From assembly GCF_900452865.1 (NCBI RefSeq), contig NZ_UGOZ01000001.1, positions 496,001 through 560,000 of the forward strand: a stretch of DNA of 64,000 nt. The letters are read 5' to 3'. Positions 33,981 to 62,267 of this stretch are shown piece after piece (position 1 is the first letter of the stretch; each line of letters starts with the position of its first letter). Origin of the DNA: Legionella taurinensis. GTDB taxonomy: Bacteria > Pseudomonadota > Gammaproteobacteria > Legionellales > Legionellaceae. A program made the position numbers and the translations under genes. The notes below the pieces were generated by a model. It did no database searches. It saw only the letters and a list, made by a program, of their open reading frames with translations, and was not told the DNA's origin.

Positions 33981-34799
33981 TTAAGCCACCTGTTGAGCAA
34001 AGTCCACTGGTGGAAAATAATTTAATGCACTATGTGGCCTCACATGGTTGTAATGATGCCGCCATTTACCAATTTCAAAACGCGCCTCTTCCAATGTTCT
34101 AAACCAATTTTGGTTGAGGCATTCGTTACGGAATTTCCCATTAAGGCTTTCAACGAAACCGTTTTGTGTTGGTTTGCCAGGCTGGATAAAGTTCAACCGT
34201 ACATTGGTTGATTTAGACCAGAAAAACATAGCCTTAGAGGTAAATTCGGTGCCATTGTCACAGACAATCTGTTCAGGGTAACCGCGCTCTTCACCAAGTT
34301 GTTCTAAAAAGCGTGTAACTTGTTGTCCAGAAATAGAGAGTGCAACAAGTTGCCCCAACAGTTCGCGGTTAAAATTGTCAATGACGTTCAATACACGAAA
34401 ACGACGACCACTCGCCAATTGGTCCGAGACAAAGTCCATCGACCAACGCTTGTTCTTCTGAGTTGGCACATCCATAATCAAGCGAGGACGTTGGAGTTTT
34501 TTTCGTGTTTTAGTACGAATCTGCAGACCTTCCTCAAGGTAAATCCGATAGGTGCGCTTCTTGTTCTGAACTAAACCTTCTCTTCGTAACAAGCTATGCA
34601 GCAACAAATAGCCATAACGAGGATATTGAACGGCCAACTCTTTCATACGTGCTTTCAACCCATCATCCGAGCGTTTTTTCTTTAGGTAGCGGTACGCCGT
34701 GCGACTTAGCCCAACCAGTTTGCAGGCAACTCGCTCACTGAGCTTAAAGTGAGTTACCAAATGCTTTGCAACACGTTTCTTACTGGTGGGCTTTACCAC
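33981..34799 (-). CDS. IS3-family transposase OrfB, copy 1
   Basis: The 272-aa product has HTH_21-type helices at the N-terminus (HFKLSERVACKLVGLSRTAYRYL). The DDE core shows the first Asp in WSMDFVSD, the second in VCDNGTEF and Glu in NGFVESLNGKFRNE. It begins with GTG overlapping the end of OrfA. An A-rich run (AAAAAAG) at the junction allows -1 slippage into OrfB. Confidence 0.93.
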   Translation of the reverse strand: MVKPTSKKRVAKHLVTHFKLSERVACKLVGLSRTAYRYLKKKRSDDGLKARMKELAVQYPRYGYLLLHSLLRREGLVQNKKRTYRIYLEEGLQIRTKTRKKLQRPRLIMDVPTQKNKRWSMDFVSDQLASGRRFRVLNVIDNFNRELLGQLVALSISGQQVTRFLEQLGEERGYPEQIVCDNGTEFTSKAMFFWSKSTNVRLNFIQPGKPTQNGFVESLNGKFRNECLNQNWFRTLEEARFEIGKWRHHYNHVRPHSALNYFPPVDFAQQVA

Positions 34800-35056
34800 T
34801 TTTTTGAAACAACGTCCTTTAGCGCTTCATTCTCCAGTAGCTTTTCTGCAAGAAGTTTTTTCAGCTTCTGGTTCTCTGATTCCAGCTCGCGTAAGCGCTT
34901 CGCTTCGTTGACCTCTAAGCCCGCATACTTGCTACGCCAATTATAGAAGCAACCGCTTGTTATCCCCATACTACGACAGATATCACCAACCTTAGCGCCA
35001 GCCTCATGCTCTTTGATTGCTTTGATTATCTGCTCTTCGCTGTAACGTCTTTTCAT
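34793..35056 (-). CDS. IS3-family transposase OrfA, copy 1
   Basis: The 87-aa HTH_Tnp_1 protein (YSEEQIIKAIKEHEAGAKVGDICRSMGITSGCFYNWRSKY) ends with a leucine-zipper-like region (LRELESENQKLKKLLAEKL). It overlaps OrfB by seven bases. It matches the 62004-62267 copy residue for residue. Confidence 0.93.
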   Translation of the reverse strand: MKRRYSEEQIIKAIKEHEAGAKVGDICRSMGITSGCFYNWRSKYAGLEVNEAKRLRELESENQKLKKLLAEKLLENEALKDVVSKKW

Positions 35057-36106: not shown

Positions 36107-36126
36107 AAAAGCAACACATTCAGCCA

Positions 36127-36161
36127 TTTTATCCTATCGGACCAAATCCGATAGGATAAAA
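36127..36161. terminator. 15-bp perfect stem-loop (probable bidirectional terminator)
   Basis: TTTTATCCTATCGGA (36127-36141) and TCCGATAGGATAAAA (36147-36161) pair perfectly around a CCAAA loop. The flanking A and T runs give U-tracts in both directions. It lies about 80 bases after the end of the interrupted nuclease gene and before the hammerhead-containing leader, so it probably isolates the two. Confidence 0.7.
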
Positions 36162-36215
36162 TTTCCTTTCATAACCCCTTGCCCAGCAAGCACCATTTTG
36201 ATAGTTTTAAATAAA

Positions 36216-36268
36216 GCATAACTGATGAGCCTGGGCAGTTCAGGCGAAACCTTATTAAGGTCTTATGC
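36216..36268 (+). ncRNA. Type I hammerhead ribozyme, copy A
   Basis: All hammerhead core positions are present. Stem I: GCATAA (36216-36221) with TTATGC (36263-36268). Core CTGATGA is at 36222-36228. Stem II: GCCTG (36229-36233) with CAGGC (36241-36245), closed by a 7-nt loop. GAAA is at 36246-36249. Stem III: CCTT (36250-36253) with AAGG (36257-36260), loop ATT. The A-U pair (36249/36261) and cleavage base C36262 (GUC, cut after it) are as required. Because stems II and III are hairpins and stem I is open, this is type I. It is followed by the hairpin module at 36271-36318 and lies upstream of the recombinase pair. Confidence 0.85.
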
Positions 36269-36270
36269 TA

Positions 36271-36318
36271 AGCCATCCTGTTCCCTAACCTAATGGCTGG
36301 ACGTTTGAGTCGGGAAAC
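36271..36318 (+). ncRNA. Conserved hairpin module after the hammerhead (STAXI-like), copy A
   Basis: Hairpin 1 is AGCCAT (36271-36276) with ATGGCT (36293-36298). Hairpin 2 is GTTT (36303-36306) with AAAC (36315-36318), whose loop includes GAGTCGGG. A CCC in the first loop (36283-36285) can pair with GGG at 36312-36314 as a short pseudoknot. The second copy at 44065-44111 preserves the shape while changing bases. Context (antirestriction, XerD-like integrases) fits the published STAXI RNA class; the assignment is by memory of that motif and not verified. Confidence 0.5.
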
Positions 36319-36346
36319 CCTTCATGGATATCTGTCATTCGGCAGC

Positions 36347-36368
36347 GTAAATTTCTAAAGAAATTTAC
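36347..36368 (+). other. Hairpin in the 36.3-kb leader
   Basis: GTAAATTTCT (36347-36356) and AGAAATTTAC (36359-36368) form a perfect 10-bp stem with a 2-nt loop, flanked by two copies of CTGTCAT. The rest of the 36370-36618 gap has no gene. It ends with AGAGAACAATATC before the next ATG, giving only a weak ribosome site. Confidence 0.4.
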
Positions 36369-36618
36369 TGTCATCACAACACCTTGTTATGACTCAGTCT
36401 AAGCGCAGAGTTACTTCTTTGCGTATTCATCTACCTATTTAAATAAAAAAGGAGAACAACACTAAAAAACCGCAGTAAACAGGCTATATCGTTTGCCTTA
36501 TAACGATTGATTTGCCCCCCAGTTGGAGCCTTGTGGCGTAAGCCTGGTATCGCTTTTGAGTGAGCCGCTCGATCAACACTAAACCAAAGTCAGGGCAAGT
36601 ATTTTAGAGAACAATATC

Positions 36619-37425
36619 ATGCGAAAAGAGTCTTTGAGGCGATCTGCCAATCGCTACTTAAAATCGGATACACGAGGCAGCTTCAAGGATAAACAAAATC
36701 GAGCTTTCGTCATTCACAAAATGATTGATGATTTATTCACGAATGGTGAGATCCCCAGTTCTTGGTCTGTTTTAAAAATTCAACATATCCAAAACCTGAT
36801 TCAGCTTTGGCAAGACAATAAAGTTAAGCCTGCTACTATTATGGATTACATGACCACGATTCGAAGTTTCTTAAACAACATCGATTGTCCATTACAAGGA
36901 ATCGATAATAAATCCTTGGGATTGGGTCGAATTTATTCGTCCAAAAGAAAAAAAATAGTTTCTCCAGATATTTGGACAAATATAAATGAGCCGGTCGCGA
37001 AAATTATTATGGCCTGTCAAATCCAATTCGGTTTGACCTTCAATGAAGCCATTAATCTAAGACCAGACATACACATTAAAGAACACAAACTTTTGCTCAC
37101 CCGTGAAGTTGCCTTTAATTCAGAGGATAGAAAAATCCCCATTCGTCACAAGAGCCAACTCGTGATTCTTCAGGCATTGATTCAATACAGCAAAGGCCGT
37201 CAAAGTTTGTTAGATATGCATCGCTATAATACCATTCGCACCCTTTGGGGTATGGCACTAAGTGCTTATAAATTACCAACCAATAAAACTTACCGATACC
37301 TTTATGCTCAACAATTAAAAAAAGAACTGCAGCCCATTCTTGGTAATTACCAAACGAATTGGCTCATTCGCGATGAAATGGGGATTAAATCCCCTAATAC
37401 ACTATGGCTCTACTTAAATGAGTAA
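36619..37425 (+). CDS. XerD-like recombinase paralog, degenerate active site
   Basis: The 268-aa product has the SAM-like N-terminal domain of the Phage_integr_N/Integrase_1 (PF12834/PF12835-type) family. Aligned by eye with the next protein, the catalytic Arg I position is Thr (FGLTFNEA against FGLRREES). The box II His is Lys (KTYRYLYAQ against HGLRHAYAQ), and the GH-box His is Ile (MGIKSPNT against LGHSRLGI). The tyrosine region remains (LWLYLNE). It is probably an inactive partner of the downstream recombinase, which overlaps it by eight bases. Confidence 0.75.
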   Translation: MRKESLRRSANRYLKSDTRGSFKDKQNRAFVIHKMIDDLFTNGEIPSSWSVLKIQHIQNLIQLWQDNKVKPATIMDYMTTIRSFLNNIDCPLQGIDNKSLGLGRIYSSKRKKIVSPDIWTNINEPVAKIIMACQIQFGLTFNEAINLRPDIHIKEHKLLLTREVAFNSEDRKIPIRHKSQLVILQALIQYSKGRQSLLDMHRYNTIRTLWGMALSAYKLPTNKTYRYLYAQQLKKELQPILGNYQTNWLIRDEMGIKSPNTLWLYLNE

Positions 37426-38450: not shown

Positions 38451-39707
38451 ATGAATAAGGTTAAATCAAAAAAGTTATCACTAGATGAATTAGTTTTTGG
38501 TGCTTTAAGTCAATTACAAGTACTTAAATATAACGCTCGCTCAATTCGTCGTTATCAGTCCACTTGGACAAGGCTAATAACGTTTGCCAAAAAGTATGGC
38601 TTCAAAAATCAGCTTTGTGAAAAGCTTATTCTTGAATTTTTAGCACTTTATGATATTCGCTCTGATTTGCCAACTGCTGCATACAATGATTGGCGAAGAC
38701 ATGCAGAATTTAGCCTTAAAATACTGTGGAATTATGCCCGTTTTGGCTATTTCGAGCGTTGCAAAATTGTATTAGACAAACTCGAAATCCCATTTGCAAT
38801 GCAGAAAAGTCTATATGAATATAAAAAATATTGCATAGAGAAACGTTACTTGAGTCCCAACACTGCAAGTGTATCTATTAGCCAAATAAGTTTATTTCTT
38901 AATTTCATGGGAAAACGAGATATTAAAACATTTCGCCAGATACAACCCAAAGACATATCCGATTTTATCTGTTCATTATCGCGTTACAGTCAAAAAACTA
39001 TTTCAGGAATTGCTTCCTATCTACGTATGTACTTCAAATTCCTGATTTATCGAGGTGACTTGAAAAATGATTTGAGCCAGTCAGTACCTAGTGTTTCTGT
39101 TCCTTATCAGGCAAAAATACCATCCGTTTGGGACCGCGAATTGATAACTAAATTACTTGATACAGTCGATAGAAGCTCACCCAGAGGAAAACGTGATTAC
39201 GCTATGTTGCTACTGGCCTGCCGATTAGGGTTAAGGTTAGGCGATATTCGTGAGCTTACATTAGATAATATTGACTGGGAAGCAGAAATGATCTCAATCA
39301 CTCAAGGCAAAACTAAAGCTCCTTTATGTCTCCCTTTAACCAATGAAGTGGGTAATGCTCTGATCGATTATATTAAATTCGCTCGTCCCGAAACAAATTA
39401 TAGGCAAGTATTTCTGAAGTTAACACAGCCTTTCACTCCCTATAGCAAAAATACTCATTTTTATAACATAGTTAGATACTGGCGCGATTTATCTGGTATT
39501 AAATTTAGAAGCCAACAACACCAAGGTCTGCATTCACTACGACATAGTTTAGCCACTTATTTGCTAGAGGATAATATTCCATTTTCGCTGATTGCTGATA
39601 TTTTAGGTCATGCCTCCATGAATACAACGATGATCTACGCTAAAGCGAGCGTTGAAACATTACGTCAAGTGGCATTGAGTATCAATGAGGTGAATCATGT
39701 CAACTAA
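38451..39707 (+). CDS. RIT recombinase A (tyrosine recombinase)
   Basis: The 418-aa product starts three bases after the GATTATC arm, with AAAGGAGG upstream. Catalytic Arg is in CRLGLRLGDIREL, His-Leu-Arg in LHSLRHSLA and His-Tyr in LGHASMNTTMIYAKA. The N-terminal domain includes a SAM-like fold. It belongs to the three-recombinase set that acts together in RIT elements. Its stop overlaps the next start. Confidence 0.85.
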   Translation: MNKVKSKKLSLDELVFGALSQLQVLKYNARSIRRYQSTWTRLITFAKKYGFKNQLCEKLILEFLALYDIRSDLPTAAYNDWRRHAEFSLKILWNYARFGYFERCKIVLDKLEIPFAMQKSLYEYKKYCIEKRYLSPNTASVSISQISLFLNFMGKRDIKTFRQIQPKDISDFICSLSRYSQKTISGIASYLRMYFKFLIYRGDLKNDLSQSVPSVSVPYQAKIPSVWDRELITKLLDTVDRSSPRGKRDYAMLLLACRLGLRLGDIRELTLDNIDWEAEMISITQGKTKAPLCLPLTNEVGNALIDYIKFARPETNYRQVFLKLTQPFTPYSKNTHFYNIVRYWRDLSGIKFRSQQHQGLHSLRHSLATYLLEDNIPFSLIADILGHASMNTTMIYAKASVETLRQVALSINEVNHVN

Positions 39708-40695
39708 CAGCAAAGCTATTCAGTTTGAAAGCCCACTTGCACCAATGATGAATCAACTGATTCTGGAAAAACGAGCCAGTGGATATAAATATGAAAAACT
39801 AGACCGTATTTTAAAGTGCTTTGATCACTTCCTGTGCCATACGACAATAAAGCAAAATGAGTTACCTAAAGAACTTGTATTGCAATGGCTGGAGAAACAA
39901 CCTGATGAGCAAGCTTCAACACAACAACGTCGAATTATTCTCGTTCGGCAACTTGCGCGATTAATGATACGATTGGGTTACCCAGCCTATGTACCTCCTT
40001 ATCGCTTTGGCGCTCAACGGTCATATGCTTTCTCACCCTATATTTTTACACAAATTGAGATTCAAAAAATTCTTCATGCTGTAGATCAACTTAAGCCAGC
40101 AGCAAGTTCGCCCCTGCGACATCTTATTATTCCAGAGATATTTCGCTTATTGTATGGATGTGGATTTCGATTAAGTGAGGTATTGAATTTACGTGTTCGT
40201 GATGTTGATTTGAAACAAGGTGTTATCACTATTCGAGAAGGTAAGCATGGTAAAGACCGGCTGGTTCCACCTGCGTTGGACATGGTAGAACGCTTGCGAG
40301 TATATGCTGAAAGCATAGATACTAACTCTCTGGAAAAACGAACTGAAGACACTTTCTTTTTCCCCTCACCGTCAGAAAGTTGTTGGGGCAAAGGAACCAT
40401 TTATACCCTATTCCGAAAGATGTTACTCCAATGTGGTATTCCTCATGGAGGCAGAGGGAAAGGACCAAGAGTCCATGATCTTCGCCACACTTTTGCGGTA
40501 CACAGACTGGTTCAGTGGTATGAGGAAGGTTGTGATCTGAATGCGAAGCTACCTTTTCTTGTAGCCTATCTTGGCCATAAAAATTTTACAGGTACACAGA
40601 AATATCTTCATCTGACTGCTGAGTTATTTCCTAACCTGACTGAACGCATGAATGAACAGTTTGGCGGTGTAATACCAAAAGGGAGACAATCATGA
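39697..40695 (+). CDS. RIT recombinase B (tyrosine recombinase)
   Basis: The 332-aa product overlaps recombinase A by 11 bases. Catalytic residues: Arg in CGFRLSEVLNL, His-Leu-Arg in VHDLRHTFAVHRL, and His-Tyr in YLGHKNFTGTQKYLHL. It is similar in fold to Tn554-type TnpB. Its stop overlaps the start of recombinase C. Confidence 0.85.
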   Translation: MSTNSKAIQFESPLAPMMNQLILEKRASGYKYEKLDRILKCFDHFLCHTTIKQNELPKELVLQWLEKQPDEQASTQQRRIILVRQLARLMIRLGYPAYVPPYRFGAQRSYAFSPYIFTQIEIQKILHAVDQLKPAASSPLRHLIIPEIFRLLYGCGFRLSEVLNLRVRDVDLKQGVITIREGKHGKDRLVPPALDMVERLRVYAESIDTNSLEKRTEDTFFFPSPSESCWGKGTIYTLFRKMLLQCGIPHGGRGKGPRVHDLRHTFAVHRLVQWYEEGCDLNAKLPFLVAYLGHKNFTGTQKYLHLTAELFPNLTERMNEQFGGVIPKGRQS

Positions 40696-41699
40696 AACCA
40701 ACAGATTTTTCAATTTATTTAAGCCGCTTCTTGAGCAACTATCTGGCTGGCCAAAGGAACTTAAGCCCGAATACTATAAAAGCATACCGTGATGTCTTTA
40801 TTCTACTATTGCGATTTTGTCGTGATGTAAAAAATATTCCGATTGAAAAACTACAACTTGAACAGGTTGATGTGGTTTTAATAGAGGCATTTCTCGATCA
40901 TATTGAAAAAGATCGACACTGTACGCCACGCACATTAAATCATCGTCTAACCACACTGCATGCATTTTTTCGGTATATTCAAGTAGAAGATCCACTATAT
41001 TTGCTGCAATGCCAGCGGATACTGGCCATTCCGTTGCGCCGGTTTGTCCGTCCTGAAGTGAGCTATCTCTCTAAAGATCATCTTGCTGCTCTTTTAGCAC
41101 AACCAAATCTTGGAAAACCTGAGGGTAGGAGAGATGTTGTGCTATTAAGTACTCTTTACGATACTGGTGCGCGAGTTCAGGAATTAATTGACCTTACCGT
41201 GGGGGATGTACGATTAAAGACGCCAGCCCAAGTTCGTATTTTAGGCAAAGGAAGAAAAATACGTGTAGTTCCTCTTATGGATAATACAGCTAATCTTTTG
41301 CAGAGCTATTTGCATGAAAATAATTTATTGCTTCCTGAGACGTTTGATTATCCATTGTTCCGGAACAATCAAGGTAACAAATTAACACGTGTAGGGGTTA
41401 ATTATATTCTACAAAAATATGAACGGTTAGTACGTGAAGCTTCTCCCCAGTATAAACAAAGAATCAGTCCGCATACGCTTCGACATACAAAAGGTATGCA
41501 TTTGCTACAAGGTGGCGTCTCTTTAGATATTATTCGCGACTTCTTAGGCCACGTAGACATAAAAACCACAGAGATTTATGCCAGAGCTAATCTTGAAATG
41601 AAACGAGCAGCAATTGAAAAAGTCAGTACGGCACCAATACCAAAAATACCTTCATGGAAAGAAAATAAATCATTATTGCAGTGGCTGCAATCTTTATAG
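40692..41699 (+). CDS. RIT recombinase C (tyrosine recombinase)
   Basis: The 335-aa product begins in ATGA overlap with recombinase B. Catalytic residues: Arg in DTGARVQELIDL, His-Leu-Arg in PHTLRHTKGMHLL, and His-Tyr in FLGHVDIKTTEIYARA. It completes the RIT trio; all three look intact. Confidence 0.85.
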   Translation: MKPTDFSIYLSRFLSNYLAGQRNLSPNTIKAYRDVFILLLRFCRDVKNIPIEKLQLEQVDVVLIEAFLDHIEKDRHCTPRTLNHRLTTLHAFFRYIQVEDPLYLLQCQRILAIPLRRFVRPEVSYLSKDHLAALLAQPNLGKPEGRRDVVLLSTLYDTGARVQELIDLTVGDVRLKTPAQVRILGKGRKIRVVPLMDNTANLLQSYLHENNLLLPETFDYPLFRNNQGNKLTRVGVNYILQKYERLVREASPQYKQRISPHTLRHTKGMHLLQGGVSLDIIRDFLGHVDIKTTEIYARANLEMKRAAIEKVSTAPIPKIPSWKENKSLLQWLQSL

Positions 41700-43890: not shown

Positions 43891-44001
43891 ATCATCATGC
43901 AGGTTGTTGTTAAAATATCAATTAATATCAAATAGATTCATTTGATAACAGCATCAGAAAAAGTATTGATTTTCCAATAAGGCCAGATAAAATTGAGGCT
44001 A

Positions 44002-44060
44002 CACAACTGATGATCCAGTGTGAGTCTGGTGAAACCTGATTAAATTTTTCGGGTCTTGTG
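44002..44060 (+). ncRNA. Type I hammerhead ribozyme, copy B
   Basis: Stem I: CACAA (44002-44006) with TTGTG (44056-44060). Core CTGATGA is at 44007-44013. Stem II: CCAG (44015-44018) with CTGG (44026-44029), with a U-U at the base (44014/44030). GAAA is at 44031-44034. Stem III: CCTGA (44035-44039) with TCGGG (44049-44053). A-U pair is 44034/44054 and cleavage base C44055. All three stems differ in sequence from copy A yet pair, which is strong covariation. The only flaw is the missing G-C at the base of stem II. It lies in the leader of the small gene 44308 and ardA. Confidence 0.8.
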
Positions 44061-44064
44061 ATAA

Positions 44065-44111
44065 CACCATCTTCTTCCTTAATTTAATGGTGGAACGTTT
44101 AGTCGGGAAAC
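44065..44111 (+). ncRNA. Conserved hairpin module after the hammerhead (STAXI-like), copy B
   Basis: Hairpin 1 is CACCAT (44065-44070) with ATGGTG (44087-44092). Hairpin 2 is GTTT (44097-44100) with AAAC (44108-44111), whose loop is AGTCGGG. Relative to copy A the first stem changed two pairs in step, and GTCGGGAAAC is unchanged. A further hairpin, TTGAATCTT with AAGATTCAA (44114-44122/44132-44140), and the shared string TTCATGGATAT follow. Confidence 0.5.
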
Positions 44112-44307: not shown

Positions 44308-44508
44308 ATGCAAACAATTAATCCTAACTCTTTGGAAATTGAACATCTGTTAGTTGAATTAGCTTTGTGCGTCAATGATCTTCAGGTTTATCGCCAGAAG
44401 TTAACTATGGATGATGCTAATCAGGCAGAACTAAGTTTAAGCAAATTGGAATCGCTGATTTCATTTATCAGAAATCACAGGAATCCTTTAAGGCTTGTTG
44501 TAATTTAA
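44308..44508 (+). CDS. Small hypothetical protein upstream of ardA
   Basis: The 66-aa product has a strong AAGGAG site before its ATG. It is helical and acidic-neutral (INPNSLEIEHLLVELALCVNDLQ..DANQAELSLSKLESLISFIRNH). No family recognised. It lies between the ribozyme-containing leader and ardA, so it might be a regulator or companion of ArdA. Confidence 0.65.
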   Translation: MQTINPNSLEIEHLLVELALCVNDLQVYRQKLTMDDANQAELSLSKLESLISFIRNHRNPLRLVVI

Positions 44509-44607: not shown

Positions 44608-45114
44608 ATGGATAAACCTAAAATTTATGTAGCCTGCTTGGCATCTTACAATAATGGTATTTTATATGGTGAATGGATAGATGCTACCCAAAGCGAAAGC
44701 GAAGTAATGGCAGATATACAAACCCTGTTAGCAAATAGTCCAATAGAGAATGCCGAGGAATTTGCGATCCATGATTTTGAAGGATTTGGTAATCTCAGGC
44801 TTGATGAGTATGAGTCTATTGCAACAGTGGTAGCTTATGCGGAATTTATAGTTGAGCATGACGAACTTGGACAGGCTTTGCTTGCTGAATATGGGCTTGA
44901 AGATGCAGAAAAGATGGTAACTGATTGTTATCATGGCTGTTACGATTCAGAAGTTGATTTTGCCTGGCATCTTTTTGAAGAATGCTATAGTAATGCGATA
45001 CCAGATAATTTGATGTGTTATTTTGATTGTGAGGCTTTTGCTCGTGATCTTTTTATCAGTGATTATTGTTCGGTAGAAGGAAATGGAATGACTCATGTTT
45101 TTTCAAGGTACTAA
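44608..45114 (+). CDS. ardA: Antirestriction protein ArdA
   Basis: The 168-aa product has the ArdA signature from the start (KIYVACLASYNNGILYGEWIDATQSESEVMADIQTLL). The conserved acidic surface EEFAIHDFEGFGNLRLDEYESI follows. ArdA mimics DNA and blocks type I restriction enzymes, which protects incoming single-strand DNA after conjugation. AGGAGAACA precedes the start. Location near the ICE end fits its role as an early-transferred gene. Confidence 0.95.
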   Translation: MDKPKIYVACLASYNNGILYGEWIDATQSESEVMADIQTLLANSPIENAEEFAIHDFEGFGNLRLDEYESIATVVAYAEFIVEHDELGQALLAEYGLEDAEKMVTDCYHGCYDSEVDFAWHLFEECYSNAIPDNLMCYFDCEAFARDLFISDYCSVEGNGMTHVFSRY

Positions 45115-45474: not shown

Positions 45475-45604
45475 GTGTTTATCGATGATGATATATTTCG
45501 TATGTAAGCTCAACAAGTGATTTATTTTACATTCAAGTATAGTGAATTTATTGTTTCTACCTAGATGGTATGAGGCAGTTTTAGGTTTTAATAGAAGGTA
45601 TTAT

Positions 45605-46654
45605 ATGAATGTTGAACCTGGACTATTTGGTTTAATTAATACAAATAGAGATTTTACACGCAAAGAAACATGGGGTAAGAACCAATTTAACTCATCTTTT
45701 CCTGCTGCTTTATGTTGTTATATGGCCTCAAAGAATATGCTAGCGAACTATCTTTCTATTTCAAAAGGGATTTTTAAGCATGATTTAATATCTATAGATA
45801 ATGTATTTGGAATAAGCTTTAACGATGAAGATACTTTTTTTGCTTTTGAATCGCAGCATACTCCTTATCAAAAACATGTACTTGGCACCTTGCCAAGAAC
45901 AGATTTAGTTATACAAAGAAAAAGTACCGGAGAATGTTTATCTGGATTAGAAGTCAAGTTGACCGCACTTCCCGACAATACAACTTGCAATCTGGATGAA
46001 GGGTTATACGGATGTGAGATAGTAGTTAGGCCAGATACGATAGTCTATTTAGCCTGTAGCATTGCTTCGGGACTTTCATCATCTTTGAATGATCTAATTC
46101 CAGAAATTGCAATTCAAGATTGGACAGAAGCAAAATATGTATTAGAAAATATAGTTGAAATAGTAAATGCTATTGCCAAAATATCTGTGGTATTAGAAGA
46201 TAAACAGCGTCCTTTCCTCCTCCAGCCAATTTGGAAAACTATTGGAAAAGTCTCGGTTTTAGCTGAAAATTGTCTGGATATGTTTATTTGGAGTGATGCT
46301 GGTTTTTGTAATTTCATATCAAAAATTGCTAAGGGAGACACTAAAGCACCCTATATTACTCGGCAAACAAGAACAGCTGTTTGGTTATTTAAAATGCTTA
46401 GCGATATAAAGAATAAAGGGCATTTTGATCATAAAGTTATTATAGATTCACTTTCATATAATACAAAGAATGATAAGGCTTTTGCTTCAGCGGGAAATAT
46501 AACCAACAAATATATGAAATGTGAAAGATTAGTTAAACCTGCTATTCTAAAAAATGAAATCAAAGAAATCATTTTAGGTGGTGGGCAGAATTTATTAAGT
46601 CCAGAAAGGCGTTTTGATGCCATAATATTTAGTTCACCGAGGTTATTCGAATGA
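45605..46654 (+). CDS. HindVP-family type II restriction endonuclease
   Basis: The product is 349 aa when started at the MNVEPGLFGLINTN methionine, the usual family start; a frame 21 codons longer is possible. The segment GLFGLINTNRDFTRKETWGKNQFNSSFPAALCCYMA matches HindVP-type enzymes. The PD-(D/E)XK site is readable as Asp in LPRTDLVI (about residue 101) and SGLEVKLTA (about 116). HindV-type enzymes cut GRCGYC. It is co-transcribed with the methyltransferase, four bases overlapping. Confidence 0.9.
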   Translation: MNVEPGLFGLINTNRDFTRKETWGKNQFNSSFPAALCCYMASKNMLANYLSISKGIFKHDLISIDNVFGISFNDEDTFFAFESQHTPYQKHVLGTLPRTDLVIQRKSTGECLSGLEVKLTALPDNTTCNLDEGLYGCEIVVRPDTIVYLACSIASGLSSSLNDLIPEIAIQDWTEAKYVLENIVEIVNAIAKISVVLEDKQRPFLLQPIWKTIGKVSVLAENCLDMFIWSDAGFCNFISKIAKGDTKAPYITRQTRTAVWLFKMLSDIKNKGHFDHKVIIDSLSYNTKNDKAFASAGNITNKYMKCERLVKPAILKNEIKEIILGGGQNLLSPERRFDAIIFSSPRLFE

Positions 46655-47625
46655 GATGCATTGATCTTTTTGCAGGATGTGGGGGGATGTCTTTAGGTTT
46701 CCAGAACGCTGGTTTTACAATTATGGCTGCATTTGAGAATTGGAAACCTGCAATTAATGTATATAAGGAAAATTTTCATCATCCAATTTTTGAACAAGAC
46801 TTAACGGATGAGAAAAATGCTATTGAAAAAATAAAAGAATATTTACCAGATCTTATAATGGGAGGACCTCCGTGCCAAGATTTTTCTAGTGCAGGAAAAC
46901 GCGATATTAACGGGGGACGTGCCGACCTAACATATAATTTTGCGAACATTGTTTGTGCAGTGAAACCAGAATGGTTTGTTATGGAGAATGTGGAGCAAAT
47001 CAAGAAAAGCCATATACTTGTCGATATAATTGACCAATTTGAGGCTACAGGTTATGGTTTAACATCCATAATACTTGATGCATCTTATTGCGGTATACCT
47101 CAAGCAAGAACTCGGTTTTTTCTAATTGGCCATTATGGGGATAAGCACAATCAGTTGAAGGGTATTATCAAAAAAAACCTTTCTGATAAACCTACAACGA
47201 TTAGAGATTATCTAGGAGATAAACTTGGTTTAGAGAATTATTATCGTCATCCACGAAATTATAACCGAAGGGGTGTGTTTTCTATTGATGAACCTAGTCC
47301 GACTGTTCGGGGAGTCAACCGTCCGGTTCCAAAGGGGTATAAACTGAATACATGCGATCCTGCGAACGTAATTTTAGAAGATATTAGACCACTAACCACG
47401 ATTGAGCGAAGTTGGCTACAAACATTTCCAGAAAACTTTAAATTCGTAGGATGTAAAACCAATTTAGAGCAGATGATTGGTAATGCGGTTCCAGTTAAAT
47501 TAGGTACATTTATTGCGAGTGCTATTAAAGAATATTCTAATTTATATATAAATGAAAAACTTAAAACAGATCAAATATTTCAATTGTCTAATAGACCTCT
47601 TCATAAAGATCTTGAATTAGCTTAG
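46651..47625 (+). CDS. C5-cytosine DNA methyltransferase (HindV-like)
   Basis: The 324-aa product has the standard motifs in order: LFAGCGGMSLGF (I), GGPPCQDFSSAGKR (IV, catalytic Cys), VMENVEQI (VI), PQARTRFFLIG (VIII) and MIGNAVPVKLG (X). It modifies the same site that the HindVP-like enzyme cuts and so protects the host. The gene overlaps the endonuclease gene by four bases. Because endonuclease comes first, correct timing would need control at the upstream operators. Confidence 0.95.
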   Translation: MRCIDLFAGCGGMSLGFQNAGFTIMAAFENWKPAINVYKENFHHPIFEQDLTDEKNAIEKIKEYLPDLIMGGPPCQDFSSAGKRDINGGRADLTYNFANIVCAVKPEWFVMENVEQIKKSHILVDIIDQFEATGYGLTSIILDASYCGIPQARTRFFLIGHYGDKHNQLKGIIKKNLSDKPTTIRDYLGDKLGLENYYRHPRNYNRRGVFSIDEPSPTVRGVNRPVPKGYKLNTCDPANVILEDIRPLTTIERSWLQTFPENFKFVGCKTNLEQMIGNAVPVKLGTFIASAIKEYSNLYINEKLKTDQIFQLSNRPLHKDLELA

Positions 47626-61191: not shown

Positions 61192-62010
61192 TTAAGCCAC
61201 CTGTTGAGCAAAGTCCACTGGTGGAAAATAATTTAATGCACTATGTGGCCTCACATGGTTGTAATGATGCCGCCATTTACCAATTTCAAAACGCGCCTCT
61301 TCCAATGTTCTAAACCAATTTTGGTTGAGGCATTCGTTACGGAATTTCCCATTAAGGCTTTCAACGAAACCGTTTTGTGTTGGTTTGCCAGGCTGGATAA
61401 AGTTCAACCGTACATTGGTTGATTTAGACCAGAAAAACATAGCCTTAGAGGTAAATTCGGTGCCATTGTCACAGACAATCTGTTCAGGGTAACCGCGCTC
61501 TTCACCAAGTTGTTCTAAAAAGCGTGTAACTTGTTGTCCAGAAATAGAGAGTGCAACAAGTTGCCCCAACAGTTCGCGGTTAAAATTGTCAATGACGTTC
61601 AATACACGAAAACGACGACCACTCGCCAATTGGTCCGAGACAAAGTCCATCGACCAACGCTTGTTCTTCTGAGTTGGCACATCCATAATCAAGCGAGGAC
61701 GTTGGAGTTTTTTTCGTGTTTTAGTACGAATCTGCAGACCTTCCTCAAGGTAAATCCGATAGGTGCGCTTCTTGTTCTGAACTAAACCTTCTCTTCGTAA
61801 CAAGCTATGCAGCAACAAATAGCCATAACGAGGATATTGAACGGCCAACTCTTTCATACGTGCTTTCAACCCATCATCCGAGCGTTTTTTCTTTAGGTAG
61901 CGGTACGCCGTGCGACTTAGCCCAACCAGTTTGCAGGCAACTCGCTCACTGAGCTTAAAGTGAGTTACCAAATGCTTTGCAACACGTTTCTTACTGGTGG
62001 GCTTTACCAC
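61192..62010 (-). CDS. IS3-family transposase OrfB, copy 2
   Basis: The 272-aa product is identical in sequence to the OrfB of copy 1, with the DDE residues in SMDFVSD, VCDNGTEF and GFVESLNGK. It begins with GTG inside the end of OrfA. Confidence 0.93.
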   Translation of the reverse strand: MVKPTSKKRVAKHLVTHFKLSERVACKLVGLSRTAYRYLKKKRSDDGLKARMKELAVQYPRYGYLLLHSLLRREGLVQNKKRTYRIYLEEGLQIRTKTRKKLQRPRLIMDVPTQKNKRWSMDFVSDQLASGRRFRVLNVIDNFNRELLGQLVALSISGQQVTRFLEQLGEERGYPEQIVCDNGTEFTSKAMFFWSKSTNVRLNFIQPGKPTQNGFVESLNGKFRNECLNQNWFRTLEEARFEIGKWRHHYNHVRPHSALNYFPPVDFAQQVA

Positions 62011-62267
62011 TTTTTTGAAACAACGTCCTTTAGCGCTTCATTCTCCAGTAGCTTTTCTGCAAGAAGTTTTTTCAGCTTCTGGTTCTCTGATTCCAGCTCG
62101 CGTAAGCGCTTCGCTTCGTTGACCTCTAAGCCCGCATACTTGCTACGCCAATTATAGAAGCAACCGCTTGTTATCCCCATACTACGACAGATATCACCAA
62201 CCTTAGCGCCAGCCTCATGCTCTTTGATTGCTTTGATTATCTGCTCTTCGCTGTAACGTCTTTTCAT
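62004..62267 (-). CDS. IS3-family transposase OrfA, copy 2
   Basis: This 87-aa HTH protein is the same as the OrfA of copy 1, with the leucine-zipper-like tail. It overlaps OrfB by seven bases with an A-rich slippery run. Confidence 0.93.
   Translation of the reverse strand: MKRRYSEEQIIKAIKEHEAGAKVGDICRSMGITSGCFYNWRSKYAGLEVNEAKRLRELESENQKLKKLLAEKLLENEALKDVVSKKW

What the first reader, a model, noticed from the sequence alone, without database searches (positions are those of the whole stretch)
36216..36268. Complete type I hammerhead ribozyme inside the ICE, upstream of a recombinase pair
Every core nucleotide of the hammerhead is present in the right order (CUGAUGA, GAA, the A-U pair, cleavage C). 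Stem I is 6 bp, stem II 5 bp and stem III 4 bp, all perfect. A self-cleaving RNA at this position would cut the leader transcript just before the STAXI-like module and upstream of the XerD-like genes. I know of no described role for a type I hammerhead in a Legionella ICE.
Basis: partly seen in the sequence, partly recalled or inferred. Interest (0 to 1): 0.9.

Follow-up and report, generated by a model that had tools for sequence, protein, structure and literature searches.

The report
Promoter-fused hammerhead ribozymes heading ICE operons
A self-cleaving RNA sits at what is probably the very start of two messenger RNAs of a mobile DNA element in Legionella, apparently as a built-in device that trims the front end of the message; ribozymes near one of these genes were already reported, but this shared layout may be new.

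Summary
The hammerhead is real. All core bases lie at 36216-36268, and its stems are supported by compensatory changes among 37 distinct relatives. It is not alone: a second, weaker copy lies at 43999-44063. In Legionellaceae the same unit recurs (matches in 84 of 143 genomes): a sigma70-like promoter, a type I hammerhead, then a compact pseudoknot. The -10 box is placed so that transcription should begin at about the first base of stem I. Among 80 named loci chosen by the recombinase Int2, 72 of 76 with room have a hammerhead upstream of the Int1-Int2 pair. Of 50 further hammerheads, 48 head an operon with orf66, SSB and/or ArdA. Rfam's RAGATH-32 is a truncated 3' part of this RNA. Best reading: a natural counterpart of the synthetic insulator RiboJ. 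The ribozyme removes its own first ~49 nt and leaves a 5'-OH messenger headed by a pseudoknot, on operons for establishment and integration. The anatomy rests on sequence comparison; cleavage, start site, stabilisation and benefit are inferred. A hammerhead just upstream of ardA in three Legionella strains was reported in 2011. I found no description of the promoter fusion, the pseudoknot or the two-operon set in the papers I could search.

The parts
36126..36162 (.). 16-bp inverted repeat upstream of the promoter, terminator-like; similar repeats precede the recombinase-type leaders read in relatives
   Evidence: terminator scan, 1 found against 0.8 expected in shuffles; sequences
36179..36207 (+). 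promoter 1: -35 TTGCCC 36179-36184, 17 nt, -10 TAGTTT 36202-36207 with TG before it; predicted start about A36214
   Evidence: best-scoring site in the 110 nt upstream; same spacing in 62 of 65 recombinase-type leaders. A strict 9-of-12 consensus scan did not find it
36214..36270 (+). hammerhead 1, type I (R1 model match 36214-36270); predicted cleavage after C36262
36271..36316 (+). pseudoknot 1: P1 36271-36276/36293-36298, P2 36301-36302/36309-36310, P3 36281-36285/36312-36316
   Evidence: 66 distinct relatives, 93.0% of 857 pair cells paired, 9 of 13 pairs with changes on both sides
36293..36373 (+). RAGATH-32 (RF02922) match; it starts at the 3' strand of P1, so the Rfam model lacks the 5' half of the pseudoknot
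   Evidence: 68.7 bits against gathering 41.8
36506..36600 (+). RAGATH-13 (RF02688), 18 nt before the first recombinase start codon
   Evidence: 95.9 bits against gathering 80
36619..37425 (+). Int1, recombinase-like protein with Phage_int_SAM_2
   Evidence: Pfam PF12834
37418..38320 (+). Int2, Phage_int_SAM_2 and Integrase_1
   Evidence: Pfam PF12834, PF12835
43966..43993 (+). promoter 2: -35 TTGATT 43966-43971, 16 nt, -10 TAAAAT 43988-43993
43999..44063 (+). hammerhead 2, weaker (5-bp stem I, U-U at the base of stem II, long stem III); predicted cleavage after C44055
   Evidence: 48.1 bits, E 1.2e-8; sequence
44065..44109 (+). pseudoknot 2: P1 44065-44070/44087-44092, P3 44075-44079/44105-44109
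   Evidence: row 2 of alignment A3
44308..44508 (+). orf66, small protein without a Pfam match, first gene of the second operon
44608..45114 (+). ArdA antirestriction protein
   Evidence: PF07275, E 5e-40

Best explanation
It is a natural, promoter-fused, 5'-terminal hammerhead. A sigma70-type promoter starts the RNA at about the first base of stem I. The ribozyme folds as soon as about 56 nt are made and cuts after C36262 (after C44055 in the second copy). The first ~49 nt, with the 5'-triphosphate, are released, and the messenger is left with a 5'-OH and a compact pseudoknot a few bases from its end. This would give both operons the same processed front end whatever the promoter or host, and would hide the messenger from decay that starts at a 5'-phosphate, as the synthetic ribozyme-plus-hairpin insulator RiboJ is thought to do. 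The operons so equipped (recombinase pair; orf66-SSB-ArdA) are those an ICE needs for integration and for settling in a new cell. Shown by comparison: hammerhead, pseudoknot, their order and spacing, the two operon kinds. Inferred: the start site, cleavage in cells, stabilisation or insulation, and the benefit in transfer.
For: Hammerhead: covariation; 100 of 101 distinct matches in the 80 named loci keep the core, with the free core position T 76, A 13, C 11 (matches were picked by a model that favours the core). Pseudoknot: 9 of 13 pairs with both-side changes, 0 of 500 shuffles. RNA rather than DNA, + strand: G-U cells outnumber A-C cells 31 to 4 in the hammerhead and 26 to 11 in the pseudoknot. 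Promoter placement: the best sigma70-like site in the 110 nt upstream ends its -10 box 12-19 nt before the core in 103 of 113 distinct leaders (62 of 65 recombinase-type, 41 of 48 ArdA-type), and in 5 of 5 places from four genomes outside Legionellaceae (13-16 nt). As a control, hammerheads in viral contigs give 6 of 69, about what 8 of some 80 positions would give by chance. The 7th base after the -10 box is A in 81 and G in 8 of 103. Genes: 72 of 76 Int2 loci with room have a hammerhead upstream, and 48 of 50 further hammerheads head orf66/SSB/ArdA; all 122 lie on the Int2 strand. Outside Legionellaceae hammerheads also head an Int1-like protein, an ArdA and an SSB (the Int1-like one has no Pfam match and was named by eye). 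L180 keeps promoter, pseudoknot and a RAGATH-13-like stretch but lacks the hammerhead, so its RNA would begin directly before the pseudoknot (read by eye). RiboJ layout and effect: PMC6206723, passages seen.
Against: No cleavage or 5'-end data were available. The strict consensus promoter scan finds nothing before hammerhead 1. Most leaders are related, so 103 of 113 is not 113 independent cases. Secondary-structure prediction gives all three stems in 53 of 113 leaders when only the ribozyme is transcribed from the predicted start, but in 13 of 113 with 75 nt downstream and 14 of 113 with 32 more nt upstream; shuffled flanks do much the same, so this neither supports nor excludes activity. L180 shows the operon can exist without the hammerhead. 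A few copies have a changed core base: L162, L065, L198 and L199. Three more Int2 loci with room have no upstream match (L181, L186, L196). The pseudoknot outside Legionellaceae was seen by eye only; a search scored no better than shuffles.
Confidence: 0.55

Rival explanations
1. Regulated switch: the pseudoknot (with RAGATH-32 and RAGATH-13) senses a protein or small molecule and controls ribozyme cleavage or translation, as an aptazyme or riboswitch-like leader.
For: The pseudoknot carries conserved single-stranded bases (UAA after P3, ACGUUUAGUC); RAGATH-32 is classed as cis-regulatory in Rfam; the leader is about 350 nt long before Int1.
Against: The hammerhead stems are complete and separate from the pseudoknot, no conserved alternative pairing between the two was looked for or noticed, and the same pseudoknot heads two different operons.
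Confidence: 0.2
2. RNA release or circularisation: cleavage at two hammerheads frees an RNA with 5'-OH and cyclic-phosphate ends that can be ligated, or the ~49-nt 5' piece itself acts as a small RNA.
For: 50 of the 80 loci have a second hammerhead on the same strand further downstream; in the window they are 7.8 kb apart.
Against: The second hammerhead has its own promoter-like site directly before it (41 of 48); the distance between copies varies by kilobases; the 5' piece shows no conservation beyond the ribozyme.
Confidence: 0.07
3. DNA element: the inverted repeats act as single-stranded DNA hairpins during conjugation (Frpo-like promoter or recombination site).
For: SSB and ArdA are typical leading-region genes, and single-stranded promoters are known there (listing; recalled); STAXI authors raised a single-stranded DNA role for their motif (PMC2864571, passage).
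Against: G-U pairs outnumber A-C mismatches on one strand, and the invariant unpaired bases are exactly those of the hammerhead core.
Confidence: 0.06
4. Plain inheritance: an ancient ribozyme carried along with these modules, now with little effect.
For: L180 lacks it, and single copies have changed core bases.
Against: Core kept in 100 of 101 distinct matches (model-selected); stems kept by compensatory change over 37 sequences.
Confidence: 0.12

Closest known systems
Bacterial hammerheads near ardA and integrase genes (Perreault et al. 2011, PMC3088659; passages seen)
   Same: Same ribozyme class; ardA directly downstream of a hammerhead in three Legionella strains; Agrobacterium copies flanking ardA cleave in vitro and in E. 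coli.
   Different: The passages I saw do not mention promoter fusion, a following pseudoknot, SSB, or a shared leader with the recombinase pair.
RAGATH-32 and RAGATH-13 (Rfam RF02922, RF02688)
   Same: Both lie in the same leader. Every one of the 86 RAGATH-32 matches over the cut-off in 143 genomes has a hammerhead match 15-24 nt upstream: 78, the other 8 by hand, two of these 8 with a changed core base.
   Different: The RAGATH-32 model starts inside the pseudoknot and shows no pairs in its first 36 positions, so it is a truncated part of a larger RNA. The original RAGATH papers were not held.
RiboJ, a synthetic ribozyme insulator (PMC6206723; passages seen)
   Same: Hammerhead placed directly behind a promoter and followed by a structured element that becomes the new 5' end.
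   Different: RiboJ is built from the sTRSV ribozyme plus a 23-nt hairpin. The natural unit is type I, minimal, and followed by a pseudoknot. Similarity of layout only.
STAXI motif (RF01728; Weinberg et al. 2010, PMC2864571; passage seen)
   Same: Pseudoknot near the same kinds of gene: SSB, antirestriction, integrase.
   Different: STAXI is two or three tandem pseudoknots in Enterobacteriales. No STAXI match here at E <= 10. I did not test whether STAXI loci have a hammerhead.
Hammerheads in viral contigs
   Same: Type I by pattern, with similar stem I bases.
   Different: Those I read sit between the end of one gene and the ribosome-binding site of the next, and have no promoter at a fixed distance (6 of 69).

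Membership tests
Hammerhead ribozyme | Invariant core CUGANGA, GAAA and a U-H cleavage site | tested here: met
   invariant columns of A1 are A8-A12, G14, A15, G33-C37, G47-T50 of the window copy; only the free core position varies
Hammerhead ribozyme | Three helices in type I order with compensatory change | tested here: met
   96.1% paired, 10 of 16 pairs with both-side changes, 0 of 500 shuffles
Hammerhead ribozyme | Score over the gathering threshold of an Rfam hammerhead model (a detection rule, not a biological feature) | tested here: not met
   best HH9 23.8 bits against 52. The Rfam models do not cover this lineage; covariation within the lineage outweighs this
Hammerhead ribozyme | Loop-loop or pseudoknot contact between stems I and II | tested here: inconclusive
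   loop II is partly conserved, but stem I is open and no partner was identified
Hammerhead ribozyme | Self-cleavage | not testable with these tools
RAGATH-32 | Match over the Rfam gathering score | tested here: met
   68.7 bits against 41.8
STAXI | Match to the Rfam model; tandem pseudoknots | tested here: not met
   no match at E <= 10; one pseudoknot, not a tandem
RiboJ-type insulator (works like) | Ribozyme directly behind the promoter, structured element behind the cut | tested here: met
   (promoter by prediction)
RiboJ-type insulator (works like) | Higher or promoter-independent expression after cleavage | not testable with these tools
   no expression data

The most novel reading that the evidence does not exclude
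Conjugative elements of Legionellaceae, and some elsewhere in Gammaproteobacteria, use a shared ribozyme-headed set of operons: every messenger for integration (Int1-Int2) and for protecting incoming DNA (SSB, ArdA) begins with a hammerhead that swaps its 5'-triphosphate for a 5'-OH in front of a pseudoknot, so that these messages last, or go unrecognised, in a freshly entered host. It would be a natural RiboJ and a reason why hammerheads cluster with these genes.
Probability: 0.35. Interest if true: 0.8.

Novelty: new variant of a known kind. Interest (0 to 1): 0.6.

Why it matters
What bacterial hammerheads are for has been open since they were found in large numbers. Here one lineage gives a fixed, testable design: promoter, ribozyme at the first base, pseudoknot, and always the same few genes. 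It turns a vague association (hammerheads near integrases and ardA) into a specific prediction of one 5'-OH end per operon, explains RAGATH-32 as part of a larger RNA, and offers a natural model for ribozyme insulators used in synthetic biology.

Tried and rejected
Chance or mis-read: rejected. STAXI: no match. Rfam Hammerhead_1 in 398 genomes drawn from the phylum: matched 1 genome, below the cut-off, and not this one; of no use for this lineage. R1 in a similar draw of 398: only this genome; in 369 of the class: 7, of which 3 are Legionellaceae. So the unit is common in Legionellaceae and rare elsewhere at this sensitivity. Close relatives of Int2 in viral contigs: none. Int2 homologues on plasmids: I fetched 5 of 165 records; the Legionella israelensis one has two hammerheads, the other four (Halioglobus, Pleionea, Shewanella, Acinetobacter) none by R1. 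So the leader does not follow this recombinase family everywhere.

Folding in context to argue for co-transcriptional cleavage: abandoned, because shuffled flanks behave alike. A first version of that script located the GAAA wrongly; its stem figures are void, and only its +1 counts are used. A pseudoknot search outside Legionellaceae was not discriminating, even for the window itself. Viral hammerheads as possible relatives: they proved to be a different, intergenic use and served as a control.

Rows dropped: of 126 places (122 plus 4), one without the core and one without flank were left out and duplicates merged, leaving 113. In one search, of 90 matches those too close to an end or duplicate were left out, leaving 69. 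In one search, 66 of the 96 distinct stretches were aligned. One search used the 150 hammerhead places that one search listed (its list was cut).

Papers: PMC3088659, PMC2864571 and PMC6206723 were seen as passages only; others as listings. Searches for a prior description. None showed this layout, but subscription journals and the original RAGATH papers are not held.

Full report
1. The observation. Rfam at gathering thresholds reports RAGATH-32 (36293-36373) and RAGATH-13 (36506-36600) but no hammerhead. With a permissive threshold the best hammerhead model is HH9 at 23.8 bits, gathering 52, E 0.0022. The single-sequence fold shows the three stems, but with an ordinary energy (z -1.12). A strict type I descriptor finds one place in the window against 0.003 per window in 300 Markov copies.

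2. Relatives settle it. RAGATH-13 occurs in 11 of 11 genomes of the genus. A descriptor found type I hammerheads about 240 nt upstream of RAGATH-13 in most of those loci. 37 distinct sequences aligned without trouble. The invariant columns are the hammerhead core; the one core position that varies freely is the one hammerheads leave free. Pairing is 96.1% of 588 cells, 10 of 16 pairs change on both sides, no shuffle of 500 does as well, and sliding the partners destroys it. A covariance model R1 then gave 38 matches in 22 loci (one place counted twice because two fetched stretches overlap), among them a second hammerhead in the window at 43999-44063. In the order (the same 143 genomes as the family) 84 of 143 have at least one match, up to 14 per genome.

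3. What it heads. In the 22 contexts, 36 of 38 matches head either the recombinase pair or an orf66/SSB/ArdA operon (SSB and ArdA by Pfam). To avoid choosing by the RNA, I searched 84,980 named genomes with the Int2 protein: 80 loci, almost all Legionella or Legionellaceae. R1 gave 122 matches in them, all on the Int2 strand. Of 76 loci with room upstream, 72 have a hammerhead within 1.7 kb, mostly 1.1-1.2 kb before Int2, that is before Int1. The exceptions are L180, L181, L186 and L196. The other 50 hammerheads lie downstream, and 48 head orf66, SSB and/or ArdA (20 have all three in order; 2 unassigned). In the window the second operon is orf66 (44308-44508) and ArdA (44608-45114), without SSB.

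4. What surrounds it. Directly behind the hammerhead lies a pseudoknot: P1 of 6 pairs, a 2-pair hairpin, and P3 UUCCC/GGGAA closing back over P1 (window 36271-36316 and 44065-44109). In 66 distinct sequences 93.0% of 857 cells pair and 9 of 13 pairs change on both sides, with no shuffle of 500 as good. P1 carries most of the covariation; P3 has few changes but includes UUCUC with GAGAA. Rfam's RAGATH-32 begins at the 3' strand of P1 and so contains only half of the pseudoknot. All 86 RAGATH-32 matches over the cut-off in 143 genomes have a hammerhead match 15-24 nt upstream: 78, 8 by hand, two of these 8 with a changed core base. In front of the hammerhead lies a sigma70-like site. Its -10 box ends 12-19 nt before the core in 103 of 113 distinct leaders, although the two operon kinds have unlike upstream sequences. 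With the usual spacing the start falls 6-9 nt before the core in 97 of those 103, that is at the first bases of stem I. In the window this is TTGCCC-17-TAGTTT, start about 36214, and TTGATT-16-TAAAAT for the second copy. These boxes are weak by consensus, and a strict scan misses the first. Five places from four genomes outside Legionellaceae show the same spacing with other sequences, and three of them head an Int1-like protein, an ArdA and an SSB (the Int1-like one named by eye). By contrast, 69 distinct hammerheads of the same pattern in viral contigs show no such placement (6 of 69) and lie between genes.

5. RNA, not DNA. On the + strand G-U pairs outnumber A-C mismatches 31 to 4 (hammerhead) and 26 to 11 (pseudoknot).

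6. How it probably works. The promoter starts the RNA at the ribozyme; the ribozyme is complete after about 56 nt, cuts itself off (49 nt in the window, counted), and leaves a 5'-OH messenger headed by the pseudoknot. 5'-OH ends are poor substrates for decay that begins at a 5'-phosphate (established knowledge, recalled). The synthetic insulator RiboJ, with the same order of parts, raised transcript abundance about twofold and protein two- to tenfold in E. coli (PMC6206723, passages). L180, where promoter and pseudoknot are kept but the hammerhead is missing, would make nearly the same RNA body with a triphosphate. That fits the idea that the ribozyme's job is the 5' end. What the 5'-OH and the pseudoknot gain for the element (longer life, insulation from the host promoter context, escape from 5'-end surveillance in a new cell) is inference.

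7. What is known. Hammerheads directly upstream of ardA in three Legionella strains and near many integrases were reported in 2011 (PMC3088659, passages). STAXI pseudoknots lie near the same gene kinds in Enterobacteriales (PMC2864571, passage). I found no description of the promoter-hammerhead-pseudoknot unit or of its two-operon set, with the limits of an open-licence library.

8. Limits. The organism is inferred to be a Legionella from relatives; G000 is unnamed. The loci are mostly one family, so counts are not independent. Fold prediction in context does not favour the hammerhead (13 of 113 with 75 nt downstream), and shuffled flanks behave alike. Four of four fetched plasmid homologues outside Legionella lack a hammerhead.

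Noticed in passing
window 36506-36600 and loci L003-L023: RAGATH-13, typed as ribozyme in Rfam, lies directly before the Int1 start codon (8-34 nt in loci where the start was read). That position suits a cis-acting leader for Int1 better than a free ribozyme.
   Followed up: partly
L219-L298 (viral contigs): 90 type I hammerhead pattern matches in 80 fetched loci; those read sit right after a stop codon and before the next ribosome-binding site, some two per locus.
   Followed up: partly
window 38451-41699: Three tyrosine recombinase genes in a row with overlapping ends, like a recombinase-in-trio element (name recalled).
   Followed up: no
window 33981-35056 and 61192-62267: Two copies of the same two-ORF insertion sequence with rve domains; the listed 272-aa and 87-aa translations are alike.
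   Followed up: no
window 45542-47625: HindVP-type restriction endonuclease and a C5 cytosine methylase downstream of ArdA.
   Followed up: no
window 36126-36162 and upstream of other recombinase-type leaders: Inverted repeat of the form TTTTGTCC...GGACAAAA with varying inner bases, at a similar distance before the promoter; terminator, operator or site unknown.
   Followed up: no
L180 8780-8890: Natural leader with promoter and pseudoknot but no hammerhead.
   Followed up: partly
L022 and L023: Weaker RAGATH-13 matches with the hammerhead about 650 nt upstream and a small ORF between.
   Followed up: no
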